From a virus, in IMG/VR virus record IMGVR_UViG_3300027973_000210, positions 1 through 25,130 of that record: DNA of 25,130 nt; one strand, written 5' to 3'. Shown here piece by piece: positions 1 to 22,843 of this stretch (its first letter is position 1; each line of letters starts with the position of its first letter). The translations under genes were made by a program, and so were the position numbers. The notes below the pieces were generated by a model. That model was given only the letters and a program-made list of their open reading frames with translations. It ran no database searches and had not been told where the DNA came from.

Positions 1-3000
1 TAATTTGATTAATATTAGATCTTGGATCATTTAATGTTGAAAGCCTTCTATTAACATCTTGAACTAAAGCCGTATCACCAGATTGGGTAGCTGCTTGACG
101 AATTTGTTCTAAAATTGGTTTAAAGGCTGTTGCCGCCGCTCCTCCAACTGCCGCTATATTTTGCGGGTTATTACTTATTGTTGATGCGCCTTCATTAAGA
201 ATTTTTGATTGTGAACCAAGTGCGCCTTGAAGAGCAGTAACCTGTCCTCCTCCAAGAATTTGTCCAGCAAGGTCACTTCTAAATTTTGCTTGATCATTTG
301 CTGTTCCAAAATTTTCAAAAAGTCCAGAAGATTCAAGTTTAGAAATTGTTTGACTTAAAGCTTCTTGTCTTCTTAAGAACGTTTCACCGCTTGCCTTTCC
401 TGTTCCTAGATTGGCTCCACCTAAATAATTAATATCTTCGTTAATTCTACTAGAAGCTCCAGAATCAAAAGCTTCTGCAATAAGAGTCGCCCCACGTTCT
501 ACATTTTGTAAAAACGTAGCATTAAAATTTTCAACAAATTGATCAAGAACTTCTTTTTGTTTTACTAATGAATCGAAATTTATTCTCTCCCTCTCTTCCC
601 CCTCTTTTATAAAAGATTGAGTTTGAGCTTCAACTGAATCTTTAAAAGAATCTATAAAATTATCAAATTCTTCATTTAAAGATTCAACACCCTCTTCTCC
701 ATCTTGTTTTTTTGCTCTTTCTTGTAAAATTGGTTTTAAAGCTTGTTGTGCATTTATAAATTCTTTTAAGTTTGCTTCTTGATTTTGTGGAGTTGAATTG
801 TTTACATTTTTTGACGCATCTGTCACCCTCTTAATAGCATCAAATAATTTTGTTTGACTATTTTTTTGATCTCCAGACAGAATTCCTTCTAATCTTTTTG
901 TAAATTCAAAAACGTCACCTACATCTTTCCCTCTAGGCGCGGTGCTTTTTTCTGAAGCATAATCTATTGGTGTGCTAAATACTTTATTTGCTATATTTGT
1001 TTTATTCTTTTCTATAAGATTTTCTTTTGTAGATTTTCCCGGTATAAGCAATTTACTATTAACTTCTTCCAAAGAGGGAGTGGCTGTTTCAAAATATTTA
1101 GATATTCCAGTGAGAAAATCTTCTTGACCAGCTTTTAAAATTTGAGCAGCAACTGCTCTCTCTCTGTTTCCCGTATTAACCGCTTGAGAATCTCTTTGTA
1201 GTTCTCTTTGTTTAACTATATTTTGTTGTTCAAACGGGTTTATTGTTCTTTTTAAATTTTGAGCTGTTACAACATCTTGTGCTGAAGAAGCTAATCTATC
1301 TATACCTTCCGAACGTTGAACTTTTGCATTAAATCCAGTAGATCCAATTTCATCATTTAATTTTGTAAATTCAGATCTTAAACCTTTAGCAGTAATTTTT
1401 ATTATTTCGTATCCATTTTTAAAAGATTCTTGAATAGTCTCAAGAGCATATTTATATCTATTTATATCTGTTTGGAGATCTGGAATTTCCATCTTCTCAA
1501 GCTTCCTTATTTCAATTTGAACATTTACAATATCTCCAAACAATCTATCAACAGCATCTCTAGCGGGTGCAATAAATTTTTCATCTATAAGCGTTCCAAA
1601 TTTAAAAGCAGAAAGACCGGTCACTATGGCAGCAATGATAGCTCCACCTATTGCAACAGCTCCTCCAGCAGCAATTCCACCAACAGCAGTCCCAAGCCCA
1701 CCTGATGCAATACTTCCAGCAGTAGCAGCGACTCTACCAGCAGTAGATGCGGCTAATCGAGTTGCTAGTCCACTTAAACCAGCTTTTATCTTTCCATAAG
1801 GAATAAGTTTTAAGACAATCGCTCCATTTGCAATAATATTTGATATATCGCTAGCTTTGCTGGCAAACTTATCTGCCGCCTCATTCATCTTTGTAATAGC
1901 TTCATTTCTTGCAGTAACTTCATCATCTAATTTGTCAATAAGATCTTTATTAGCCTTTTCCTTTTTTCTCTTTTCAGCTTCTAAAGCCTTTACAGCTTTA
2001 TCTCTAGCATCTGTTTCGTTTTTTAAAGCCTCTTCGTCAAGAGCGTAAGCTCTCGCCATGCTTTCAATAGCAGGAATACCCACAAAATAATATGCAGTGC
2101 TTAAGGCTCCAATAGCTCCTGACATTTTTTCAAATCTTGAAGAAAGCTTTGTTGTTGCAGCCGTTGCTGCTTGTGCGGCGGCTGCTTGTGCCGTTGCCGC
2201 TTGTGCGGCGGCAGCTTGTGGAGATCCTCCAGCACTGCCAAGGACAAAATTAGGAACAAATCCTCTTGCTGCAAGATTGCTTCCGTAAGTTTTTGGATTT
2301 TTACCTTCACTTATTGCTCTTTTTATTCCATCCTTTACTCCATTTGGCTCGTCATATTCGTTTGCAACCGAAATACCTTGTTTATTAAAAGGTGATTTTA
2401 ATGAATTATCTTGATCGATATAGATTTTATCTCTTGGAACTCCTGCTGCCATTTCTCTTGAGATAGCATCATTAAGAGCGGCAAAGTTTGGTATGAAACC
2501 AGATGCTGCTCTTCTTCTTGCTCTTTTTGTTGGGGGATTATTAGCTTCCTCTTCTTCTTCTAAAACTCCTAACTTTTCTTTATAGTAACCCTTTTTATCA
2601 TTTAATATTTTTCTTGCATAACTTTCTATAGAAGATTCGCTTGTTGATACTTTAAAATCTCCCGACTTAACTTCTTTTGTAATACCGAATAATTTCTTTA
2701 AATCTGGTGAAACAGACAGAGCATCCCAATCTCCTCCTTCTGGTTTTTTCGTATCATTTCCATCAATTCCCAATCCTTGCGTAATTACAGCTTCAAAAGC
2801 TGCGCCAGCAGCACCTTGAACAGCGCCATAAGCTCCTTTATTACCTCCTTTTTGTGCAAGCCTTGTTGCTATGGTTTCTGGACTGATCTCTCCTTTCATC
2901 AGCGGATTTGAAAGTTTTTTCGAATAAGAAATTGCTGTAGAGATAATATTATTCATTGCTTCTTTTGAAATAGAAGCTTCTTCTTCTTTAGTTGTGCTTG

Positions 3001-5257
3001 AATTTGTTTGTGGTCCCGCTAATTGTGTTGGACTTAATATATATTTAATATTTTTAACATTCTGCCATTTATCTAAAGAACCTGATCCTAATTGTCTCTC
3101 TGATTCGTATGTCTTATTAAGATTAGGAATTAAAAAAGCATAGTCTCTAGCTTCTATTTCCAAAGGCTTTAGTGGAGAACCAACTCTATTTTCATCTTCT
3201 TCTTTTTTTAGAGCTTTTGTAGTAGCTTTTTTGTTTTTTGCTTCTTTTATTTGTTGTGCTGTATATGATACTTGTTTTCCATTAACATCTACTAATACGC
3301 TACCGTCCCGTAAGGCTAAGTTTTCGAAATTCTTTAAAGAATCATCTGGATAATCTTCTAAATTTTCGCGATTAAACTGTTTCTTAGTAGTCTGTGCAGG
3401 TCTCTTTTTTCTTGTGCCGAAAAAATTTGGCACAAACCCACTAGCATATAAAGGAATAACCGCAGAATCTCTTCTACCACCAAAGTTTGGAATTTCAACT
3501 TCCTGATTATTCATGATGAACTTTTGTCCACCAATTGTTCCTTGACCCATTTTTGCTTTAACAGAAGAAGAAGCTCCAAAGGATTTAGCCATTGCCTCTT
3601 CCTCTTTAAATCCAGCAGCAAATCTCTTCTTACCTCCTTTATTTGTAAATCCTCCACTTGGAGAGAATCCTCCAACTCCAGCTTTAGAGGCGGCAGTAGC
3701 AATACTATTAACCAAAGCCTGTTGTTGTGTTAATAAAGCATTTTGTTGTTTAATAGCATTAATAACCGCCTGTTCTTTTTGGGCTTGAGTTGCGCTTGAA
3801 CTTAAAAGAATTGCTCTTAAATTTGCATCTTGTTGAAGAAGGGCAACAATGCCTCCTTCGATGTTTTTAATTCTTTCTTGTTCTGATCCAATTTTAAACA
3901 AATCAGAAATGCCTTCCTTTGCAAACTTTGCAACAACTTGAAATAATTTAAAGAAGGCAGCAGAGACTAAAACTAATCCCGGTCCAGCAATAAAGGCTCC
4001 AACTCCTTTGAAAAATCCTTGAATTAATTTATTACCTTCTTCTGGATCAAAAACCTTATTTAAAATATCAAGTAATTTATTTGCCCCAGTTAATAGATTT
4101 TCAATAACAGGAGCAATAGAGAGTTCGCCTATTTTAGAACCAAGCTCAGTCAATCCTTGAACTAATTTATTTATTTGAGCAGCAAGAGTTTGATTTAATT
4201 GGGCATTTTTTTCAAAAGCCTCATTAGAAGCTTGACCAGCAGTTTGAGAGGCTCTAGCAAAAATTGAAGTTTCGCTAGATAAATCTTTTAAAGCAGCAGA
4301 AACAACGTTAATTTGATAGACACCACCAGCAAGTTCTTTAATGGCATTCGCTTGTGTTGGATCTGAAATCTTTGAAAGAGCATCAGATAATGCCTGTAAT
4401 TTTTGAACACCTGTTTGGCTTGATTCTATTTCAACGCCAAGAGCCTTAAGGTCTTCAATAACTGTTCCTCTCGAAAGTCTTGAGAAGATAGATTTAAAGG
4501 CGTTACCAATAACAGCACCACCTCTTGCCGTTGTCTGTTGAACAGATGTAACTAATCCAAGCAACTCATCAAAAGAAACTCCAGCATCTTCAGCCGTAGA
4601 TCCTGCTCTAGAAAATGCTTCAGCCAAATCTTTAGCAGACACAGCAAAAGCCGTATCAACTGCAATTAATTTATTAACTATTTGTTCCGCAGTAAGTCCA
4701 GCAGATGTGAAACCATTAATTGCTGCTGTCAAAGCGTTAACAGAACCTTCTGCATCTAATCCAGAAACTCTTGTAAGAATAAGGGAGGCATTTAATCTCT
4801 TTACAGTTTCTTCTGCTGACAAACCCTGTCTTGCTAATTCCGAAGCAGCATCCGCAACTGTAGAAAATGTTTGTCCAGTATTTTTTGCAACATCAAAAAT
4901 TGCATTTTTAAATTGACCCAATTGTTCAGTCGTTCCTCCTAAAATAGATCCAATTTCTGTTAATCTTTTTTCAACTTCTATAGTTGAAGAGACTAAGGCT
5001 TTAAAAGCAGTAGAAAGACCATTAATAATAGAAACAGCAGCACCGAAGGCAAACACACGCGCAGTCGCGGCATTGATTGATTTATCAAACTCAGAGGCTT
5101 GACCAGTAATCCTTCCTAAAGAATTATTAAAATTATTTACCGCTTTTGTTGGTAAATTAATATTACCAAAAGCAGATTGAACCTGTTTCCCAGCCGCATT
5201 TATACTTGCTGGATTAAAATTAAGATTAGCGGTAACCGTAACAGGAGCAGTAGCCAT
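1..5257 (-). CDS. Phage tail tape measure protein (partial, C-terminus beyond left edge)
   Basis: The minus-strand frame is open from the ATG at 5257-5255 to the window edge (1,752 codons, no stop seen). Residues about 60-330 read as a TP901-type tape measure core, rich in Ala/Gly/Ser helices (for example VEKRLTEIGSILGGTTEQL). This is followed by a hydrophobic stretch near 400-430, an Ala/Gln repeat at about 1013-1033 (DNA 2159-2221) and a Gly/Ala membrane-like segment near 1180-1210. Family knowledge: tape measure proteins set tail length and leave through the tube during DNA injection. Unusual here are four PNF motifs (residues 589-592, 607-612, 920-925, 999-1004) and, between them, a PD-(D/E)XK-like segment (E822, D843/D845, E862-x-K864). 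The gene follows two putative chaperone genes, as is normal for a tape measure. No Shine-Dalgarno is visible. The tape measure identity is secure; the inserted domains are inference. Confidence 0.93.
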   Translation of the reverse strand, partial: MATAPVTVTANLNFNPASINAAGKQVQSAFGNINLPTKAVNNFNNSLGRITGQASEFDKSINAATARVFAFGAAVSIINGLSTAFKALVSSTIEVEKRLTEIGSILGGTTEQLGQFKNAIFDVAKNTGQTFSTVADAASELARQGLSAEETVKRLNASLILTRVSGLDAEGSVNALTAAINGFTSAGLTAEQIVNKLIAVDTAFAVSAKDLAEAFSRAGSTAEDAGVSFDELLGLVTSVQQTTARGGAVIGNAFKSIFSRLSRGTVIEDLKALGVEIESSQTGVQKLQALSDALSKISDPTQANAIKELAGGVYQINVVSAALKDLSSETSIFARASQTAGQASNEAFEKNAQLNQTLAAQINKLVQGLTELGSKIGELSIAPVIENLLTGANKLLDILNKVFDPEEGNKLIQGFFKGVGAFIAGPGLVLVSAAFFKLFQVVAKFAKEGISDLFKIGSEQERIKNIEGGIVALLQQDANLRAILLSSSATQAQKEQAVINAIKQQNALLTQQQALVNSIATAASKAGVGGFSPSGGFTNKGGKKRFAAGFKEEEAMAKSFGASSSVKAKMGQGTIGGQKFIMNNQEVEIPNFGGRRDSAVIPLYASGFVPNFFGTRKKRPAQTTKKQFNRENLEDYPDDSLKNFENLALRDGSVLVDVNGKQVSYTAQQIKEAKNKKATTKALKKEEDENRVGSPLKPLEIEARDYAFLIPNLNKTYESERQLGSGSLDKWQNVKNIKYILSPTQLAGPQTNSSTTKEEEASISKEAMNNIISTAISYSKKLSNPLMKGEISPETIATRLAQKGGNKGAYGAVQGAAGAAFEAVITQGLGIDGNDTKKPEGGDWDALSVSPDLKKLFGITKEVKSGDFKVSTSESSIESYARKILNDKKGYYKEKLGVLEEEEEANNPPTKRARRRAASGFIPNFAALNDAISREMAAGVPRDKIYIDQDNSLKSPFNKQGISVANEYDEPNGVKDGIKRAISEGKNPKTYGSNLAARGFVPNFVLGSAGGSPQAAAAQAATAQAAAAQAATAATTKLSSRFEKMSGAIGALSTAYYFVGIPAIESMARAYALDEEALKNETDARDKAVKALEAEKRKKEKANKDLIDKLDDEVTARNEAITKMNEAADKFASKASDISNIIANGAIVLKLIPYGKIKAGLSGLATRLAASTAGRVAATAGSIASGGLGTAVGGIAAGGAVAIGGAIIAAIVTGLSAFKFGTLIDEKFIAPARDAVDRLFGDIVNVQIEIRKLEKMEIPDLQTDINRYKYALETIQESFKNGYEIIKITAKGLRSEFTKLNDEIGSTGFNAKVQRSEGIDRLASSAQDVVTAQNLKRTINPFEQQNIVKQRELQRDSQAVNTGNRERAVAAQILKAGQEDFLTGISKYFETATPSLEEVNSKLLIPGKSTKENLIEKNKTNIANKVFSTPIDYASEKSTAPRGKDVGDVFEFTKRLEGILSGDQKNSQTKLFDAIKRVTDASKNVNNSTPQNQEANLKEFINAQQALKPILQERAKKQDGEEGVESLNEEFDNFIDSFKDSVEAQTQSFIKEGEERERINFDSLVKQKEVLDQFVENFNATFLQNVERGATLIAEAFDSGASSRINEDINYLGGANLGTGKASGETFLRRQEALSQTISKLESSGLFENFGTANDQAKFRSDLAGQILGGGQVTALQGALGSQSKILNEGASTISNNPQNIAAVGGAAATAFKPILEQIRQAATQSGDTALVQDVNRRLSTLNDPRSNINQI

Positions 5258-17062: not shown

Positions 17063-18971
17063 ATATGGTAAAAGGAACAAAAGTAGAGACTACCCTCTTC
17101 TCTTCATTAACTTCTAGAGAATCAAAATAAACCTTGGCCCACCAATTTAAAAGAACCAATGATGAATAAAGATCTTTTCTTGGTCTATTTGGACCTCTTT
17201 GCTTTCTCATATGCAATGGCAAATCAAATGATTGGGTTCCTTGTGGATTTGTTGTAACCTCAATGTTTGATGTTTGAATTTTTGTTAATTCAATATTCTG
17301 CTTACAATAGTCAATTAAATCAACCTTACAGGCGTCATCGTTAGACGCTCTATATTCTGGCTCCCACTTCAAGTCTTTAATTGGAACATCCGCCCTGCTT
17401 TGTTCTTCAAAATGCTTGTCTCCCAAGAATGCTCCAGAAGCAAAAATGATTCTTTTATGATCGATACTTGCTTGTAGCATTTCGTTTGCAATTCTAATCC
17501 AAGAAGAGGAGGGATTTCTTAAAAAACAAATCTTATTCTCAGAGTGATTTATTGAACCTTTCATCCTTAATAAATCAGCATGATAATCTTCTGATTTATC
17601 AAAGTCTCCTTCAACATATTTAATTTCAATTTTTGAATTTTTAAATAATTCACTTTCGTTGCATGAACTGATAAATTGCAATCCTCCGTTTCTATCCCCC
17701 ACTATTCCAACAACGTTAAAATGAGTATAAAGATAATGAAAATATGTCATATATGTTTTCAACTGTTGACCAGTAAGAGCGAATGAATGAACTATTGCTA
17801 CTTTATTTTCTGATTTCAATAATTTGCCTACATGCATACTGAAAAAGTCAGCTTCCTCACTTTCAGACCAAGAAGGGTCAAAGGCCAATATATATTCGTC
17901 CGTAGGGCTTCCAATAATTTCTACGGCAGGAAAGTCTCCTTCAGCAACCGTGCATTGCATCATTCGACTCATCTTAAAGTAGGAGTCTCCCTCGTCTCCG
18001 AATTGTGCGCCAAACTCTCTATCAAACTGAGCCTTACTCATTGTGGCTTTTGCTTGATTTAAAAGATTTTGATCGTAAAGTTCTGGAGGAGCTAAATCAT
18101 AAGATAACTGAAAAACAGATCTATAAGCAGAGGATGACCCAAGCTCTTCTCCAGTATTATGCTTTTGAGAATCGTGTTGACCTAAAATAAGATCAATAAA
18201 CTGCTTATAAAGTTTATACATGTATTCGAATTTAAAAGAGGGGGAAGAGAGTAGAATCAACTTATTATTTGGCCAAGCAAATCTTTCCTCTTCTGTCATT
18301 TTACCTTGAGAAATAAGCCTTGCCTCAAGATCCCTCAGTTCTTTTCTTTCTGTTGGATTTTCAATAACACCCAAGAACGGCATGATAACTTCGTTAAAGA
18401 TCTTCTCTGGCATTGTTAAAAACTCATCAATAACAATTCTATTAAATCTAAAACCACGAAGCCTTTCTCCGTTAGCGAGAGGTAGAGCAATTGCCCTGCT
18501 TCTTCCAATTTTTAAAGTCCACTGATCGGTTCCCTTTTGGATCAAGTTTTTTGAACAGATACAGTCCATTGCTAATTTTGAAGCAGGTTTTGCAAGAATG
18601 TCTTCGATTTTGGTAAAAATCATTTTAGACTGTCTAAATGTTCCAGCCAAAACCCCAATGTTACATCCTTGATTAAACATCAACTCTAAAATCAAATAAA
18701 TGGCAGTTGAAAATGTTTTAGACATACCACGCGCCAAAACGTGCATTGTATAATCTGAAACGAATAGAGCTTTAATTAAAATAGCTTGAAAAGGAAAAAG
18801 CTTAATCCCAAGAAAGAACTCTGTTGCAAACGTTATATTGTTTCTCAAAAAACGATACAGCAATACAGAAGCCTCGTCTTGTTCAAGCCAGCCTTCCTTT
18901 TCTAAAATTTCTGAATTAACAACCCCTGCTGAATAATCCAATCTTTTTCCTTGTTTACCTTTATCCCACAT
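17061..18971 (-). CDS. terL: Terminase large subunit
   Basis: A 636-residue packaging motor protein. The N-terminal ATPase has a Gln motif (PFQ, 60-62), a Walker A ARGMSKT at 80-86, a Walker B IVIDE at 179-183 and a coupling motif LLSSPS near 240-245. The C-terminal RNase H-like nuclease shows the acidic triad in ILAFDPSW (D365), VGIVGDRNGG (D426) and SNDDACKVDL (D545/D546). Family knowledge: it cuts concatemeric DNA and pumps it through the portal. The usual Gly before the Walker Lys is Ser here, a variant seen in some terminases. The start overlaps the end of the upstream nuclease gene by 11 bases, so the two are translationally linked. Confidence 0.95.
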   Translation of the reverse strand: MWDKGKQGKRLDYSAGVVNSEILEKEGWLEQDEASVLLYRFLRNNITFATEFFLGIKLFPFQAILIKALFVSDYTMHVLARGMSKTFSTAIYLILELMFNQGCNIGVLAGTFRQSKMIFTKIEDILAKPASKLAMDCICSKNLIQKGTDQWTLKIGRSRAIALPLANGERLRGFRFNRIVIDEFLTMPEKIFNEVIMPFLGVIENPTERKELRDLEARLISQGKMTEEERFAWPNNKLILLSSPSFKFEYMYKLYKQFIDLILGQHDSQKHNTGEELGSSSAYRSVFQLSYDLAPPELYDQNLLNQAKATMSKAQFDREFGAQFGDEGDSYFKMSRMMQCTVAEGDFPAVEIIGSPTDEYILAFDPSWSESEEADFFSMHVGKLLKSENKVAIVHSFALTGQQLKTYMTYFHYLYTHFNVVGIVGDRNGGLQFISSCNESELFKNSKIEIKYVEGDFDKSEDYHADLLRMKGSINHSENKICFLRNPSSSWIRIANEMLQASIDHKRIIFASGAFLGDKHFEEQSRADVPIKDLKWEPEYRASNDDACKVDLIDYCKQNIELTKIQTSNIEVTTNPQGTQSFDLPLHMRKQRGPNRPRKDLYSSLVLLNWWAKVYFDSLEVNEEKRVVSTFVPFTI

Positions 18972-19887
18972 ATTTTTTATCTAAGTAAAATTGTAAATCG
19001 CACCTATGCATTTGCTTTCCAAAATAAAGAATTCTTTGAGTTATATCCTTTGCATCTTCTTTGTCTTTACAGAATACAAATTGTATTGTTTCTGGATAGG
19101 TTAAACAAAGTTTTCTAACATTAGAAAAAGCAAAAGACAAATTGGTTTGATATTTGAATTGAAGATTTTGACGAATAATTTCTGCAAAAGTTCCTTCGAC
19201 AACAACAAACAAAAAGCTATTAAAACTCTTTGTTCTTTCGACCTCCTTTTTAAATCTTTCAAAACCAACTCCAAAGGTTCCCTTAAAATCATTTATAGAC
19301 TTTCTATCTATAAAGGTAGAACTATAAAAATCTCCACCAGCACAATAGTCTCCACAATCAAGCTTGTTGATTAATTGATTTTTAAAATCAAAAGGCTTTT
19401 GTTCGCGAGTGTCTACATGAATCTCTATTTTGTCTAAGTCTTCTTTAGAAACATCCCAAAAACCTTCTGGCAGAGGTTGGTTATAAAAGTATTCAACTTT
19501 TAGTTCTTTTGCTAGATTTTCTGCTGATTCAAAGAATCTTTCACAAGTAATTAGTCCAGCCCTTTTCTTGGTAATGAAATAATTTTGAGAAGGTAAGAAG
19601 GAAAACTTATATCTTTCTTTATCGGCCTTCAATTCATGAAGAATAACCTCCTTGCCTTCTTTTGTTGAGCATCCTTTTAAAAACTTATTTCTATTGACTA
19701 ATGAATTAAAACATTCCCCCTTATATTGTTGAGGGTTATTAAAATCAATCAAAGATCCATCAAGTCTATCTCTATTTGGAAAATTTCTTTGGTAATATGT
19801 AGCAATGCCCCCATGTTTATTTACATGGATATGTAAGCCAGCTTCTTTTGTAAAAGATGCTCCACATTCTGCACATTTATAATTCAT
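18961..19887 (-). CDS. C2H2 zinc finger fused to ERCC4/XPF-type nuclease
   Basis: A 308-residue protein. Residues 5-25 form a classic C2H2 finger (C5-x2-C8-x12-H21-x3-H25). From residue 155 on, the ERCC4 nuclease pattern is clear: VDTREQKP (158-165), GD at 179-180, IDRKSIND (193-200, in place of the usual ERKxxxD) and downstream basic helix FERFKKEVER. Family knowledge: XPF-like nucleases cut branched or flap DNA. The gene overlaps its neighbours on both sides (4 bases upstream, 11 with the terminase), so it probably acts in packaging, for instance on replication branches before or during cutting. This place is held by HNH endonucleases in many HK97-type phages. Function in packaging is inference. 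Confidence 0.85.
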   Translation of the reverse strand: MNYKCAECGASFTKEAGLHIHVNKHGGIATYYQRNFPNRDRLDGSLIDFNNPQQYKGECFNSLVNRNKFLKGCSTKEGKEVILHELKADKERYKFSFLPSQNYFITKKRAGLITCERFFESAENLAKELKVEYFYNQPLPEGFWDVSKEDLDKIEIHVDTREQKPFDFKNQLINKLDCGDYCAGGDFYSSTFIDRKSINDFKGTFGVGFERFKKEVERTKSFNSFLFVVVEGTFAEIIRQNLQFKYQTNLSFAFSNVRKLCLTYPETIQFVFCKDKEDAKDITQRILYFGKQMHRCDLQFYLDKKYVG

Positions 19888-20945
19888 AGAATTTCATATC
19901 TACTAATACCAAAGACTCTACCCTTTAATTCATCAACCGATTCAAGCCTATCTATTTCTTCTGCAACAAGCCTGTTTTGCATTTCGGCCATCATTACCAT
20001 CTTCTTTCTGTCTTCGTAACTTTGAAAGACTTCAACAATAGAAAGAAAATTGATAGTAGCATCTCCCTTCTTTTCTAATCTTTTGGCCCGATCTCCGTTT
20101 AATTTATTAATCAAGGAATCGATTCTTTTCTCACACTTATCTAGTTCATCAGATGTTGCCTTGAGATGCTCTGTTAATCTCATAGTAAGATCTTCTGCTG
20201 AAAGTTCTTCACTCTCAAGCATGTTATTAAATTGATCTAATCTCTTTTGGATTTTTGCTTTTCTTACATAATTGGAACAAACCATCATGTAAAGATTCAA
20301 CTCATCTGTAGTTAAATCGTCTTTACTCCAAACAGAACGAACAAATTCTGATTCAAACAATTCCCGATCTCCCTGCGTTTTGTAAGAATTAATTTCAGAA
20401 TCGAGCTTATAGCTTCTATAATATTTAAGAAGGGATTCTATGCATTTTTTTGTTTTCATAGTAATCTGCTTGGGATCTTCTGAAATATTTTCACCTGTCC
20501 ATTTATTAATCCTTCTTATTGCAGAAAGCATAGATTTTGGGCTATGCCATTTTGCGTCAACAGAAAGTTCCGTTTCGTCTACAATATCATTCCTATTCTT
20601 ATAAAGGAATTCTTGAACAGCCCTGTGTTCTGCCGATAAAGGTTTTATACTGTCATCGCTTAAAACAAGCTTTGCTATCTCAAAAGCTGTCATAGATGAG
20701 TTGATTCTATCCCCCATCATGAACTGAAGTTGCTGATCCGTAAAATTAACAAACTTCTTTTTTTCACTCTTTGTTGTATTATACTGTCTACCCTGTTCAG
20801 CAAGGAAAGATCTTATAGCCCTTCCTTCTTTACTTCTTCCATCCAAGGCTTCGTCATCAAAAACAATTTGTGTTATGACATTAAGATCTGGCGTAATCTT
20901 AAATTGATCCAAGATTTTTTGTTTCTGTTCCTGAGATAGTTTCAT
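19884..20945 (-). CDS. Putative terminase small subunit or DNA-binding packaging protein
   Basis: A 353-residue, highly helical, charged protein. The first 130 residues hold two short repeated helical segments, each with a 'DD + L + S/GRS/EGRA + FL' character (DDEALDGRSKEGRAIRSFL near 30-49 and DDSIKPLSAEHRAVQEFLY near 96-114), suggesting a duplicated DNA-binding helical unit. The C-terminal part (about 230-330) is a long coiled coil. It lies next to the nuclease and large terminase in an overlapping operon, where a small terminase would be expected. No family was recognised, and it is larger than most small terminases. Confidence 0.5.
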   Translation of the reverse strand: MKLSQEQKQKILDQFKITPDLNVITQIVFDDEALDGRSKEGRAIRSFLAEQGRQYNTTKSEKKKFVNFTDQQLQFMMGDRINSSMTAFEIAKLVLSDDSIKPLSAEHRAVQEFLYKNRNDIVDETELSVDAKWHSPKSMLSAIRRINKWTGENISEDPKQITMKTKKCIESLLKYYRSYKLDSEINSYKTQGDRELFESEFVRSVWSKDDLTTDELNLYMMVCSNYVRKAKIQKRLDQFNNMLESEELSAEDLTMRLTEHLKATSDELDKCEKRIDSLINKLNGDRAKRLEKKGDATINFLSIVEVFQSYEDRKKMVMMAEMQNRLVAEEIDRLESVDELKGRVFGISRYEIL

Positions 20946-21628
20946 TGAATTATATCGTTTTCCATGATAATCTTTTTGGCCAATTCATAGAATTTCTTTT
21001 TGATATTATTGATTTGTTTATAACGGCTGGATTTGCGTTCTGAAGTTGGATCTTTTTTAAACTTCATCTTCTTTGCTACATACTCCTCATCAAAACCTTC
21101 AATATATAAAAGCTTATACACCTCTCTATGTCTATCGTTAGATAACTCCTCAAGCATCTTTACATGGATCTCTTCAATCTTTACTTCATAATCGAGAAAG
21201 CTACCTTCTTTTAAATAGTTAACAAAATCATTATCATCAATGCTAACTGGAATTTTTACATCATAAGCATTCTTCTTTCCTTTCAACCATTTCAAATATA
21301 ATTTACAAGAAGAGTCTTGTTTTGAAGATTTGTTTTTTGAACAACCTTCTCCACCAATGTTAAATTCACATTTCAAGCAGGGCTTGGCAAAATTTGCGTA
21401 GTTGTTTCTGACTAAGTTATATATTTGATTTGAGATAACACTACTGCACCAAGGTTTGAAAGAACGGGTTTGGTCCCAAAGCTTCCATTTGTTAAAAATA
21501 TGAACTCTTATAATCTGACAAACATCATCGTAATCCATCCAAGCAATGGCGTCCAATTGCCACTTAACTCGATTACGTCTCAGTAAATCGTTAATTTCTT
21601 CAAACTTATCTTCAAATGTATAATTCAT
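20942..21628 (-). CDS. Sigma70-like transcription factor with cysteine insert
   Basis: A 228-residue protein. Residues about 30-75 resemble sigma region 2 (DYDDVCQIIRVHIFNKW, then WCSSVISNQIYNLVRNNY). Residues about 155-215 resemble region 4, with a helix-turn-helix-like VYKLLYIEGFDEEYVAKKM and a basic tail. Between them lies a C84-x2-C87-x8-C96-x11-C108 pattern, a probable zinc knuckle. Family knowledge: phage sigma factors switch host RNA polymerase to late promoters. Its place inside the packaging operon suits a late-gene regulator. It overlaps both neighbours by four bases. Sigma-like identity is fairly secure; the zinc site and late role are inferred. Which promoters it reads is unknown. 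Confidence 0.75.
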   Translation of the reverse strand: MNYTFEDKFEEINDLLRRNRVKWQLDAIAWMDYDDVCQIIRVHIFNKWKLWDQTRSFKPWCSSVISNQIYNLVRNNYANFAKPCLKCEFNIGGEGCSKNKSSKQDSSCKLYLKWLKGKKNAYDVKIPVSIDDNDFVNYLKEGSFLDYEVKIEEIHVKMLEELSNDRHREVYKLLYIEGFDEEYVAKKMKFKKDPTSERKSSRYKQINNIKKKFYELAKKIIMENDIIQ

Positions 21629-22017: not shown

Positions 22018-22069
22018 GATTAATAAAGTTTTTACTACTAATTATAGTAATAAATGCTTTAAAAATCAA
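22015..22069 (-). promoter_or_regulatory. Promoter of the packaging-head operon
   Basis: On the minus strand: TTGATT at 22069-22064, a 17-nt spacer and a perfect TATAAT at 22046-22041. The -35 overlaps the stop of the PhoH-like gene. The leader would be about 17 nt without a Shine-Dalgarno. The -35 matches that of the promoter near 6941. Confidence 0.7.
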
Positions 22070-22749
22070 TTATTAATATTCTCTATCTTCTCCAAGATGT
22101 AGGCGACAACAGGATCTCTCATGATGTCTTCCTTCTCAAAACGAAGACTATGAATTCCGTGAGAACTCGCCTCTTCTGTTTGAAAGGTCTTACATATTTT
22201 AGAAAATCCTGTATTTCTGATATCGCTTTGGAATTCATCGCCGCATATAAATATTTTTGTGTTGGAATTGATTCTAGTAAGAATCGTTGTTAATTCTTGA
22301 ATTGTGGCATTTTGCATTTCATCTGCTATGACAATTTGATTTTTCCAATCCTGCCCACGAATAAAGTTAATAGGCGCGGCATTAAGGGCTTTGTTGTCTA
22401 CAAGAAGGGAGGTCTCCTTCTCATTAAGAATTTCCCCAATTTTATCAACAAGGGGTCTCATGTATGGATCGAACTTCTCATCAAGAGAACCTTTAAGGAA
22501 CCCTAAGCTTTTTTGGGAGGATTCAACTACCGTTCTTAAGTAGTTTATCTTGATGTTTTTAGAATCTTCGTTAAAAAGATGAAGGGCGGCATATACTGCT
22601 AAAAAGGTTTTTGATGTTCCCGCTGGTCCACTAAGGAAAACTATTTTTGTTTCCCTTTGGGTCATTATTTTAAAGAATTGTTGTTGTTTGGGGGTCAGTT
22701 CGATGTTGCCCAAGAGCAACCCTGTCTTAAAGTTCTTTTTACTTGACAT
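22066..22749 (-). CDS. phoH: PhoH-like P-loop ATPase
   Basis: A 227-residue PhoH-family protein from ATG 22749 (a GTG one codon upstream is possible). Residues 20-30 carry the TPKQQQFF-type start of the family, Walker A GPAGTSKT lies at 41-48, Walker B IVIADEMQN at 139-147, and a sensor-like ICGDEFQSD at 168-176. Family knowledge: PhoH proteins are common in tailed phages, related to the helicase core of RecD-like enzymes; their phage role is unsettled (RNA metabolism or phosphate response have been suggested). It is read towards the packaging operon and has a divergent neighbour at 22844. A TAAATT box lies 6 nt before the ATG, the same distance as in the small-gene promoters. Confidence 0.93.
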   Translation of the reverse strand: MSSKKNFKTGLLLGNIELTPKQQQFFKIMTQRETKIVFLSGPAGTSKTFLAVYAALHLFNEDSKNIKINYLRTVVESSQKSLGFLKGSLDEKFDPYMRPLVDKIGEILNEKETSLLVDNKALNAAPINFIRGQDWKNQIVIADEMQNATIQELTTILTRINSNTKIFICGDEFQSDIRNTGFSKICKTFQTEEASSHGIHSLRFEKEDIMRDPVVAYILEKIENINN

Positions 22750-22843
22750 CACGGTAATTTACACTATATCTTTTTGGAAAAGAAGGAAGGTTATTGTTTT
22801 ATTTTTGTGCCGAAATCGTTATAATTAATGTATAGGAACTATT
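22750..22843. promoter_or_regulatory. Divergent promoter region where the coding strand flips
   Basis: The gap lies between the minus-strand PhoH-like gene and the first plus-strand gene. For the plus strand there is a TATAAT at 22820-22825 (a poor -35, TTGTTT, at 19 nt) and an AGGA Shine-Dalgarno-like site at 22834-22837, 6 nt before the ATG. For the minus strand a TAAATT box lies 6 nt before the PhoH ATG. Confidence 0.45.

What the first reader, a model, noticed from the sequence alone, without database searches (positions are those of the whole stretch)
2570..2860. PD-(D/E)XK-like segment inside the tape measure protein
Residues about 800-895 hold a Glu in an Ala-rich helix (AAFEAVI, E822), Asp in GGDWDAL (D843/D845) and KEVKSGDF (E862-x-K864), in the order and spacing of a restriction-endonuclease-like core. 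A nuclease in a protein that enters or contacts the host cell at injection could cut host DNA or aid genome entry. I recall similar inserts in other large-phage tape measures but cannot verify it.
Basis: partly seen in the sequence, partly recalled or inferred. Interest (0 to 1): 0.66.

Follow-up and report, generated by a model that had tools for sequence, protein, structure and literature searches.

The report
Swappable nuclease-like cassette in phage tape-measure
Inside the protein that sets the tail length of an uncultured phage lies a domain with a nuclease-type active site; in related phages this and other enzyme-like domains are swapped in and out as whole cassettes between repeated GF(I/V)PNFA linkers, so the tail ruler looks like a delivery vehicle for effectors entering the host cell.

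Summary
By itself the quoted motif is at chance level: 49% of shuffles of the segment contain it. In 99 relatives under 80% identical, however, four positions are almost frozen: D845 (99/99), K869 (98/99), E822 (96 E, 2 D) and 867 (65 D, 33 E). Position 883 is K in 82 and Q in 15. This is an E-D-(D/E)xK-(K/Q) signature. The triplet is D867-F-K869; E862 and K864 are not conserved. No Pfam, PHROG, NCBIfam or PDB sequence match exists. Two AlphaFold models (window and L109) share one topology but match no solved structure. The PD-(D/E)XK fold is therefore unproven and nuclease activity is inferred.

The larger result is the setting. The module lies between G[FY][IV]PNF linkers and between two hydrophobic segments of the tape measure protein. 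Related phages carry other domains there (GNAT, staphylococcal nuclease; kinase-, HAD- and P-loop-like). Cassettes are gained, lost or replaced with DNA breakpoints at the linkers: L083 and L089 are 99.6% identical up to the first linker, then carry entirely different cassettes. The module itself is swapped between L027 and L093. Best reading: a polymorphic cargo array delivered on the tape measure protein.

The parts
2..5257 (-). Tape measure protein gene, 1752 aa to the contig end (3' end outside the window)
   Evidence: ORF and translation; PF10145 residues 123-311, 4.5e-26; tape-measure PHROGs
4325..4891 (-). PhageMin_Tail domain, residues 123-311
   Evidence: Pfam PF10145
3950..4006 (-). 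Hydrophobic segment 1 (peak at residue 427, KD 1.91), N-terminal to the cargo region
   Evidence: Hydropathy; found near residue 430 in 97% of 118 related TMPs
3422..3439 (-). Linker motif 1, GFVPNF, residues 607-612
   Evidence: Position; motif profile over 538 occurrences
2570..3163 (-). Nuclease-like cassette module, residues about 699-896 (N-terminal strands, helices, active-site region)
   Evidence: AlphaFold2 boundaries; conserved core residues 764-886 by HMM
2792..2794 (-). E822 codon, in helix 809-828
   Evidence: E 96 and D 2 of 99
2723..2725 (-). D845 codon, start of a short strand
   Evidence: D 99 of 99
2651..2659 (-). D867-F868-K869, the (D/E)xK triplet
   Evidence: 867 D 65 and E 33; K869 98 of 99
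2609..2611 (-). K883 codon, in the following helix
   Evidence: K 82 and Q 15 of 99
2264..2500 (-). Conserved terminal 'cap' repeat, residues 920-998, starting with linker motif 2 (GFIPNF 920-925, nt 2483-2500)
   Evidence: Alignments A1 and A3; ends the cargo array in most relatives
2246..2263 (-). Linker motif 3, GFVPNF, residues 999-1004
1622..1678 (-). Hydrophobic segment 2 (peak at residue 1203, KD 2.18), C-terminal to the cargo region

Best explanation
Residues about 699-896 are a mobile enzymatic cassette within a cargo array of the tape measure protein (TMP). Shown here: (1) an almost invariant E822, D845, (D/E)867-x-K869, (K/Q)883 set that looks like a PD-(D/E)XK-type metal-dependent nuclease site; (2) an array bounded by G[FY][IV]PNF linkers, at which whole cassettes are exchanged by recombination; (3) an array lying between two hydrophobic segments whose array-facing flanks are positively charged. 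[quoted passage not shown] There it would cut host or competing DNA, or nucleic acid used by defence systems. Nuclease chemistry, cytoplasmic exposure and target are untested.
For: Conservation of the signature with only D/E and K/Q exchanges, in modules averaging 18% column identity. Profile links to further TMP cargo segments. Whole-cassette gain, loss and replacement with DNA breakpoints at the linkers in all five pairs examined; 18 of 23 TMP pairs with 95-99% identical N-termini differ in cassette content. Other cassettes score above Pfam cut-offs as GNAT (PF00583, 6.8e-7) and staphylococcal nuclease (PF00565, 6.3e-5). Hydrophobic segments flank the array, and the array side of segment 1 is the more positive one in 92% of 118 TMPs. 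The TP901-1 TMP has two hydrophobic regions, and the stretch between them is predicted to be cytoplasmic (PMC5099701). The lambda TMP was the only phage protein robustly labelled by a ManZ-linked proximity tag during injection (PMC13190303).
Against: No profile-library hit for the module and no meaningful PDB sequence hit for its profiles. No structural match for two models. The predicted topology shows only two short strands around the active site, separated by a helix, with no strand after the last helix, so the canonical core is not seen. How folded domains would fit the tail tube lumen is unexplained. No host is known.
Confidence: 0.58

Rival explanations
1. The module is a catalytic domain of a new fold with an E-D-(D/E)xK metal site that acts on something other than a nucleic-acid backbone (for example nucleotides or protein), still delivered as TMP cargo.
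For: Two AlphaFold models agree on a topology (beta-meander, helices, short strand, helix, short strand, helix) with no solved-structure match. Neighbouring cassettes are kinase-, GNAT- and HAD-like, so non-nuclease activities are common in these slots.
Against: D/E exchange at the x-K position and K/Q exchange in the next helix are typical of PD-(D/E)XK sites (general knowledge); spacings E-23-D-22-D-x-K fall in the range of known restriction enzymes (recalled, not tested).
Confidence: 0.24
2. The module is a structural or processing part of the tape measure protein and the conserved charged residues hold its fold or bind a metal without catalysis.
For: It is present in 120 of 137 sampled TMPs at a similar place (the sample is biased because the module was the search query).
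Against: The whole module is replaced by very divergent versions in TMPs whose flanks are 95-99% identical (L027/L093, L083/L089), yet the same charged residues stay fixed.
Confidence: 0.1
3. The segment works at the cell envelope (periplasm or peptidoglycan) like known lytic domains of tape measure proteins.
For: Some TMPs of cultured phages with similar N-termini are annotated as lytic transglycosylases.
Against: No peptidoglycan hydrolase family hit; other cassettes are GNAT, kinase-like or nuclease-like, which act in the cytoplasm; charge pattern favours a cytoplasmic loop.
Confidence: 0.04
4. One reading: catalytic residues E822, D843/D845, E862 and K864.
For: The letters are present at those positions.
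Against: E862 and K864 are not conserved while D867-x-K869 is; the quoted motif alone occurs in 49% of shuffles.
Confidence: 0.02

Closest known systems
PD-(D/E)XK (restriction-endonuclease-like) nuclease superfamily
   Same: E in a helix, D, (D/E)xK and a K/Q in the following helix, almost invariant
   Different: No family or fold hit; predicted order of elements is not the full alpha-beta-beta-beta-alpha-beta core
Sle1-type and Tme tape-measure-related effectors of contractile injection systems (PMC13277306, PMC11126660)
   Same: Tape-measure-like carrier with variable functional domains and membrane segments, loaded in a tail-like tube and ejected
   Different: Those are bacterial injection-system effectors with a variable C-terminal domain; here it is the tape measure protein of a tailed phage, with up to about eight internal cassettes between repeated linkers
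Polyvalent proteins of phages and conjugative elements (PMC5512222)
   Same: Multidomain proteins predicted to enter the host with the DNA, mixing disparate enzymatic domains
   Different: Those described are other virion-linked or separate proteins; a text search of that paper finds no mention of 'tape'
Polymorphic toxins (PMC3482391)
   Same: Conserved carrier with recombining toxin-like cassettes
   Different: Those vary at the C-terminus and usually come with immunity genes; here cassettes are internal and no immunity gene was looked for
Tape measure protein of phage TP901-1 (PMC5099701)
   Same: Tape measure protein with two hydrophobic regions and a predicted cytoplasmic stretch between them
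   Different: In TP901-1 that stretch is 129 aa and the passages read here describe no enzymatic cargo; here it is hundreds to over a thousand residues of cassettes

Membership tests
PD-(D/E)XK nuclease superfamily | Conserved D ... (D/E)xK active-site signature, often with E in the first helix and K/Q in the second | tested here: met
   99 modules: D845 99, 867 D/E 98, K869 98, E822 E/D 98, 883 K/Q 97
PD-(D/E)XK nuclease superfamily | Restriction-endonuclease-like fold with alpha-beta-beta-beta-alpha-beta core | tested here: not met
   Two AlphaFold2 models, Foldseek against PDB and (first model) BFVD: nothing significant; secondary structure lacks the full core
PD-(D/E)XK nuclease superfamily | Sequence-profile match to a known family of the clan | tested here: not met
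   Pfam, PHROGs, NCBIfam, PADLOC and PDB sequence searches
PD-(D/E)XK nuclease superfamily | Metal-dependent nuclease activity | not testable with these tools
   Needs purified protein
Tape measure protein of a tailed phage | PhageMin_Tail/TMP homology, long protein in a phage structural gene block | tested here: met
   PF10145 4.5e-26, tape-measure PHROGs, terminase gene on the same strand
Polymorphic toxin system | Conserved carrier with variable domains exchanged by recombination | tested here: met
   DNA breakpoints at linkers, 18 of 23 close pairs differ
Polymorphic toxin system | Adjacent cognate immunity genes and toxic activity | not tested
   Neighbouring genes of relatives were not examined for immunity proteins
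Sle1/Tme-type TMP-related CIS effectors | Encoded in a contractile injection system cluster, associated with a DUF4157 domain | tested here: not met
   The window carries a terminase large subunit, a phage genome feature; no DUF4157 hit in the TMP; the other genes were not scanned against Pfam

The most novel reading that the evidence does not exclude
A large group of uncultured phages uses the tape measure protein as a reconfigurable carrier: arrays of interchangeable enzymatic effectors sit between GF(I/V)PNFA linkers in the loop that would face the host cytoplasm, and are swapped by recombination at these linkers, with a new family of nuclease-like domains as the commonest cassette in this sample.
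Probability: 0.6. Interest if true: 0.86.

Novelty: new variant of a known kind. Interest (0 to 1): 0.76.

Why it matters
Tape measure proteins are mostly seen as rulers and DNA-entry channels. If they also carry exchangeable cytoplasmic effectors, these phages would have an injected, pre-made arsenal acting before any phage gene is expressed. It also gives clear cases of recent domain mosaicism in tape measure proteins: a broad survey of phage protein mosaicism saw only a sequence signal there and could not confirm a genuine recent case (PMC10684548). The linkers give a simple handle for finding more cassettes.

Tried and rejected
Recognition by Pfam, PHROGs, NCBIfam, PADLOC, PDB sequence and by Foldseek against PDB/BFVD: none. 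Cultured phages: no module match. Bacterial and archaeal genomes: 64 stretches match the patterns but none encodes a relative of the cap repeat by tblastn. Mrr_cat family in control genomes, wanted for a profile-profile comparison: no loci returned. A motif count over the other cassette families (11 of 42 with an E-D-[DE]xK pattern against about 5 expected by shuffling) is only a mild excess, so the other 'restriction-enzyme-like' cassettes seen by eye are leads, not results. Linkers as DNA-level repeats: codon identity within one TMP is only slightly above controls (0.54 against 0.51 and 0.49), so concerted DNA conservation of linkers is not shown. A tool call with a wrong frame and two alignments unusable for scanning gave nothing.

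Full report
What was checked. The window is an IMG/VR virus record of 25,130 bases. The minus-strand ORF 5257..2 encodes a tape measure protein (TMP) of at least 1752 aa. The quoted strings are at the quoted positions. As a bare pattern they mean little: about half of the shuffles of the segment contain E-x15-35-D-x10-30-[DE]xK.

Relatives. A scan with the segment gave 17 viral loci, and two alignment-based scans gave about 160 more. An HMM of the module finds it in 120 of 137 non-redundant TMPs (the sample is biased toward the module, since it was the query). Over 99 modules below 80% identity: G818 99, D845 99, K869 98, E822 E96/D2, F821 94, 867 D65/E33, 883 K82/Q15; E862 and K864 drift freely. 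Almost only acid-for-acid or K-for-Q changes at the charged positions, in modules with a mean column identity of 18%, is what an active site looks like.

Fold. AlphaFold2 on the window module (62 sequences; most of the core at about 83-94 pLDDT, residues 830-839 at 66) gives an N-terminal beta region, three helices with E822 in the third (809-828), a two-residue strand after D845, a helix, a strand 865-868 holding D867, and a helix 874-887 with K883. A second member, L109 (51 sequences), gives the same order. Neither matches a solved structure, nor the first a viral model. The canonical alpha-beta-beta-beta-alpha-beta core is not seen: no strand follows the last helix, and short versions such as L023 and L041 end about nine residues after it, before the next linker. 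So the active site looks like PD-(D/E)XK but membership by fold is not shown.

Setting. The motif G[FY][IV]PNF recurs, often preceded by AA or AS and followed by A, over 538 occurrences. It bounds the module and, in relatives, many other segments: 42-44 families of cassettes or linker-bounded segments besides the module and the cap. A GNAT acetyltransferase (PF00583, 6.8e-7) and a staphylococcal nuclease (PF00565, 6.3e-5) are above the curated cut-offs. P-loop, nucleotidyltransferase, HAD, metallopeptidase, protein-kinase and ADP-ribosyltransferase resemblances are motif readings only. A cap of about 77 aa (ALxxAIxRExxAG...DEPxG) ends the array in most TMPs.

Exchange. Closely related TMPs differ by whole cassettes. 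L083 and L089 are 99.6% identical over 1,898 bp up to GFIPNFA, completely different until the next GFIPNFA, then share stretches at 95.6-99.5% identity. L027 and L093 (95.1% and 95.7% flanks) have swapped the nuclease-like module itself. L002/L027, L126/L164 and L059/L064 show gain, loss or replacement at the same boundaries. Among pairs with 95-99% identical N-termini, 18 of 23 differ in cassettes. Related contigs make some pairs non-independent.

Topology. A hydrophobic segment lies near residue 430 in 97% of 118 TMPs and another after the array in 65% (at the 1.5 threshold). Mean net charge rises from -1.6 before to +1.1 after segment 1 (higher in 92%), and is +1.3 before and 0 after segment 2, so both array-facing flanks are positive. 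This fits the TP901-1 TMP, with hydrophobic regions I390-Y460 and F591-V679 and a predicted cytoplasmic stretch between them (PMC5099701), and the labelling of the lambda TMP by a ManZ-linked proximity tag during injection (PMC13190303). That the loop faces the host cytoplasm here is inference.

Mechanism. Most likely, on DNA entry the TMP inserts into the inner membrane and presents its cassettes to the cytoplasm. The nuclease-like one would cut host or competing DNA, or substrates of defence; rapid swapping of cassettes suggests an arms race. Shown: signature, conservation, linkers, exchange, charge pattern. Inferred: nuclease activity, cytoplasmic exposure, target, benefit. Packing of folded cassettes in the tube is an open problem; a TMP-like effector has been proposed to adapt its shape to the lumen and fold after ejection (PMC13277306).

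Known systems. Closest are TMP-related effectors of contractile injection systems with variable C-terminal domains (PMC13277306, PMC11126660), polyvalent proteins (PMC5512222) and polymorphic toxins (PMC3482391). No paper in the library contains GFIPNFA, and searches for nuclease or effector domains in tape measure proteins found no description of such arrays. A survey of phage protein mosaicism could not confirm genuine recent cases in TMPs (PMC10684548). The library holds only openly licensed papers, so earlier description elsewhere cannot be excluded.

Noticed in passing
window 18961-19887 (-): ERCC4-type nuclease gene (phrog_3490, 2.8e-10) next to the terminase large subunit gene.
   Followed up: no
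window 20942-21628 (-): Weak match to a phage RNA polymerase sigma factor (phrog_1740, 2.3e-5).
   Followed up: no
window 22066-22752 (-): P-loop protein that looks PhoH-like by eye (GNIELTPKQQQFFKIM...SGPAGTSKT).
   Followed up: no
window 2160-2220: Fifteen-base tandem repeat coding an Ala-rich stretch (AAAAQAATAQAAAAQAA) right after the last linker of the cargo array.
   Followed up: no
L011 TMP residues about 787-886 and 1053-1161: Two copies of the module; the second reads GDWIDASINPTDK where others have (D/E)xK, possibly an inactive copy.
   Followed up: no
L016/L056 (contig IMGVR_UViG_3300027728_000006): A TMP of about 3,500 aa with eight linker-bounded segments including GNAT, HAD-like, metallopeptidase-like and P-loop plus nucleotidyltransferase-like domains.
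   Followed up: partly
L094:7871-8518 and L094:9002-10006: Cassettes resembling an ADP-ribosyltransferase (LYRG...) and a protein kinase (GSGSYKSVF) by eye; no Pfam hit.
   Followed up: partly
L136 TMP: Very long TMP (over 4,100 aa) with many linkers.
   Followed up: no
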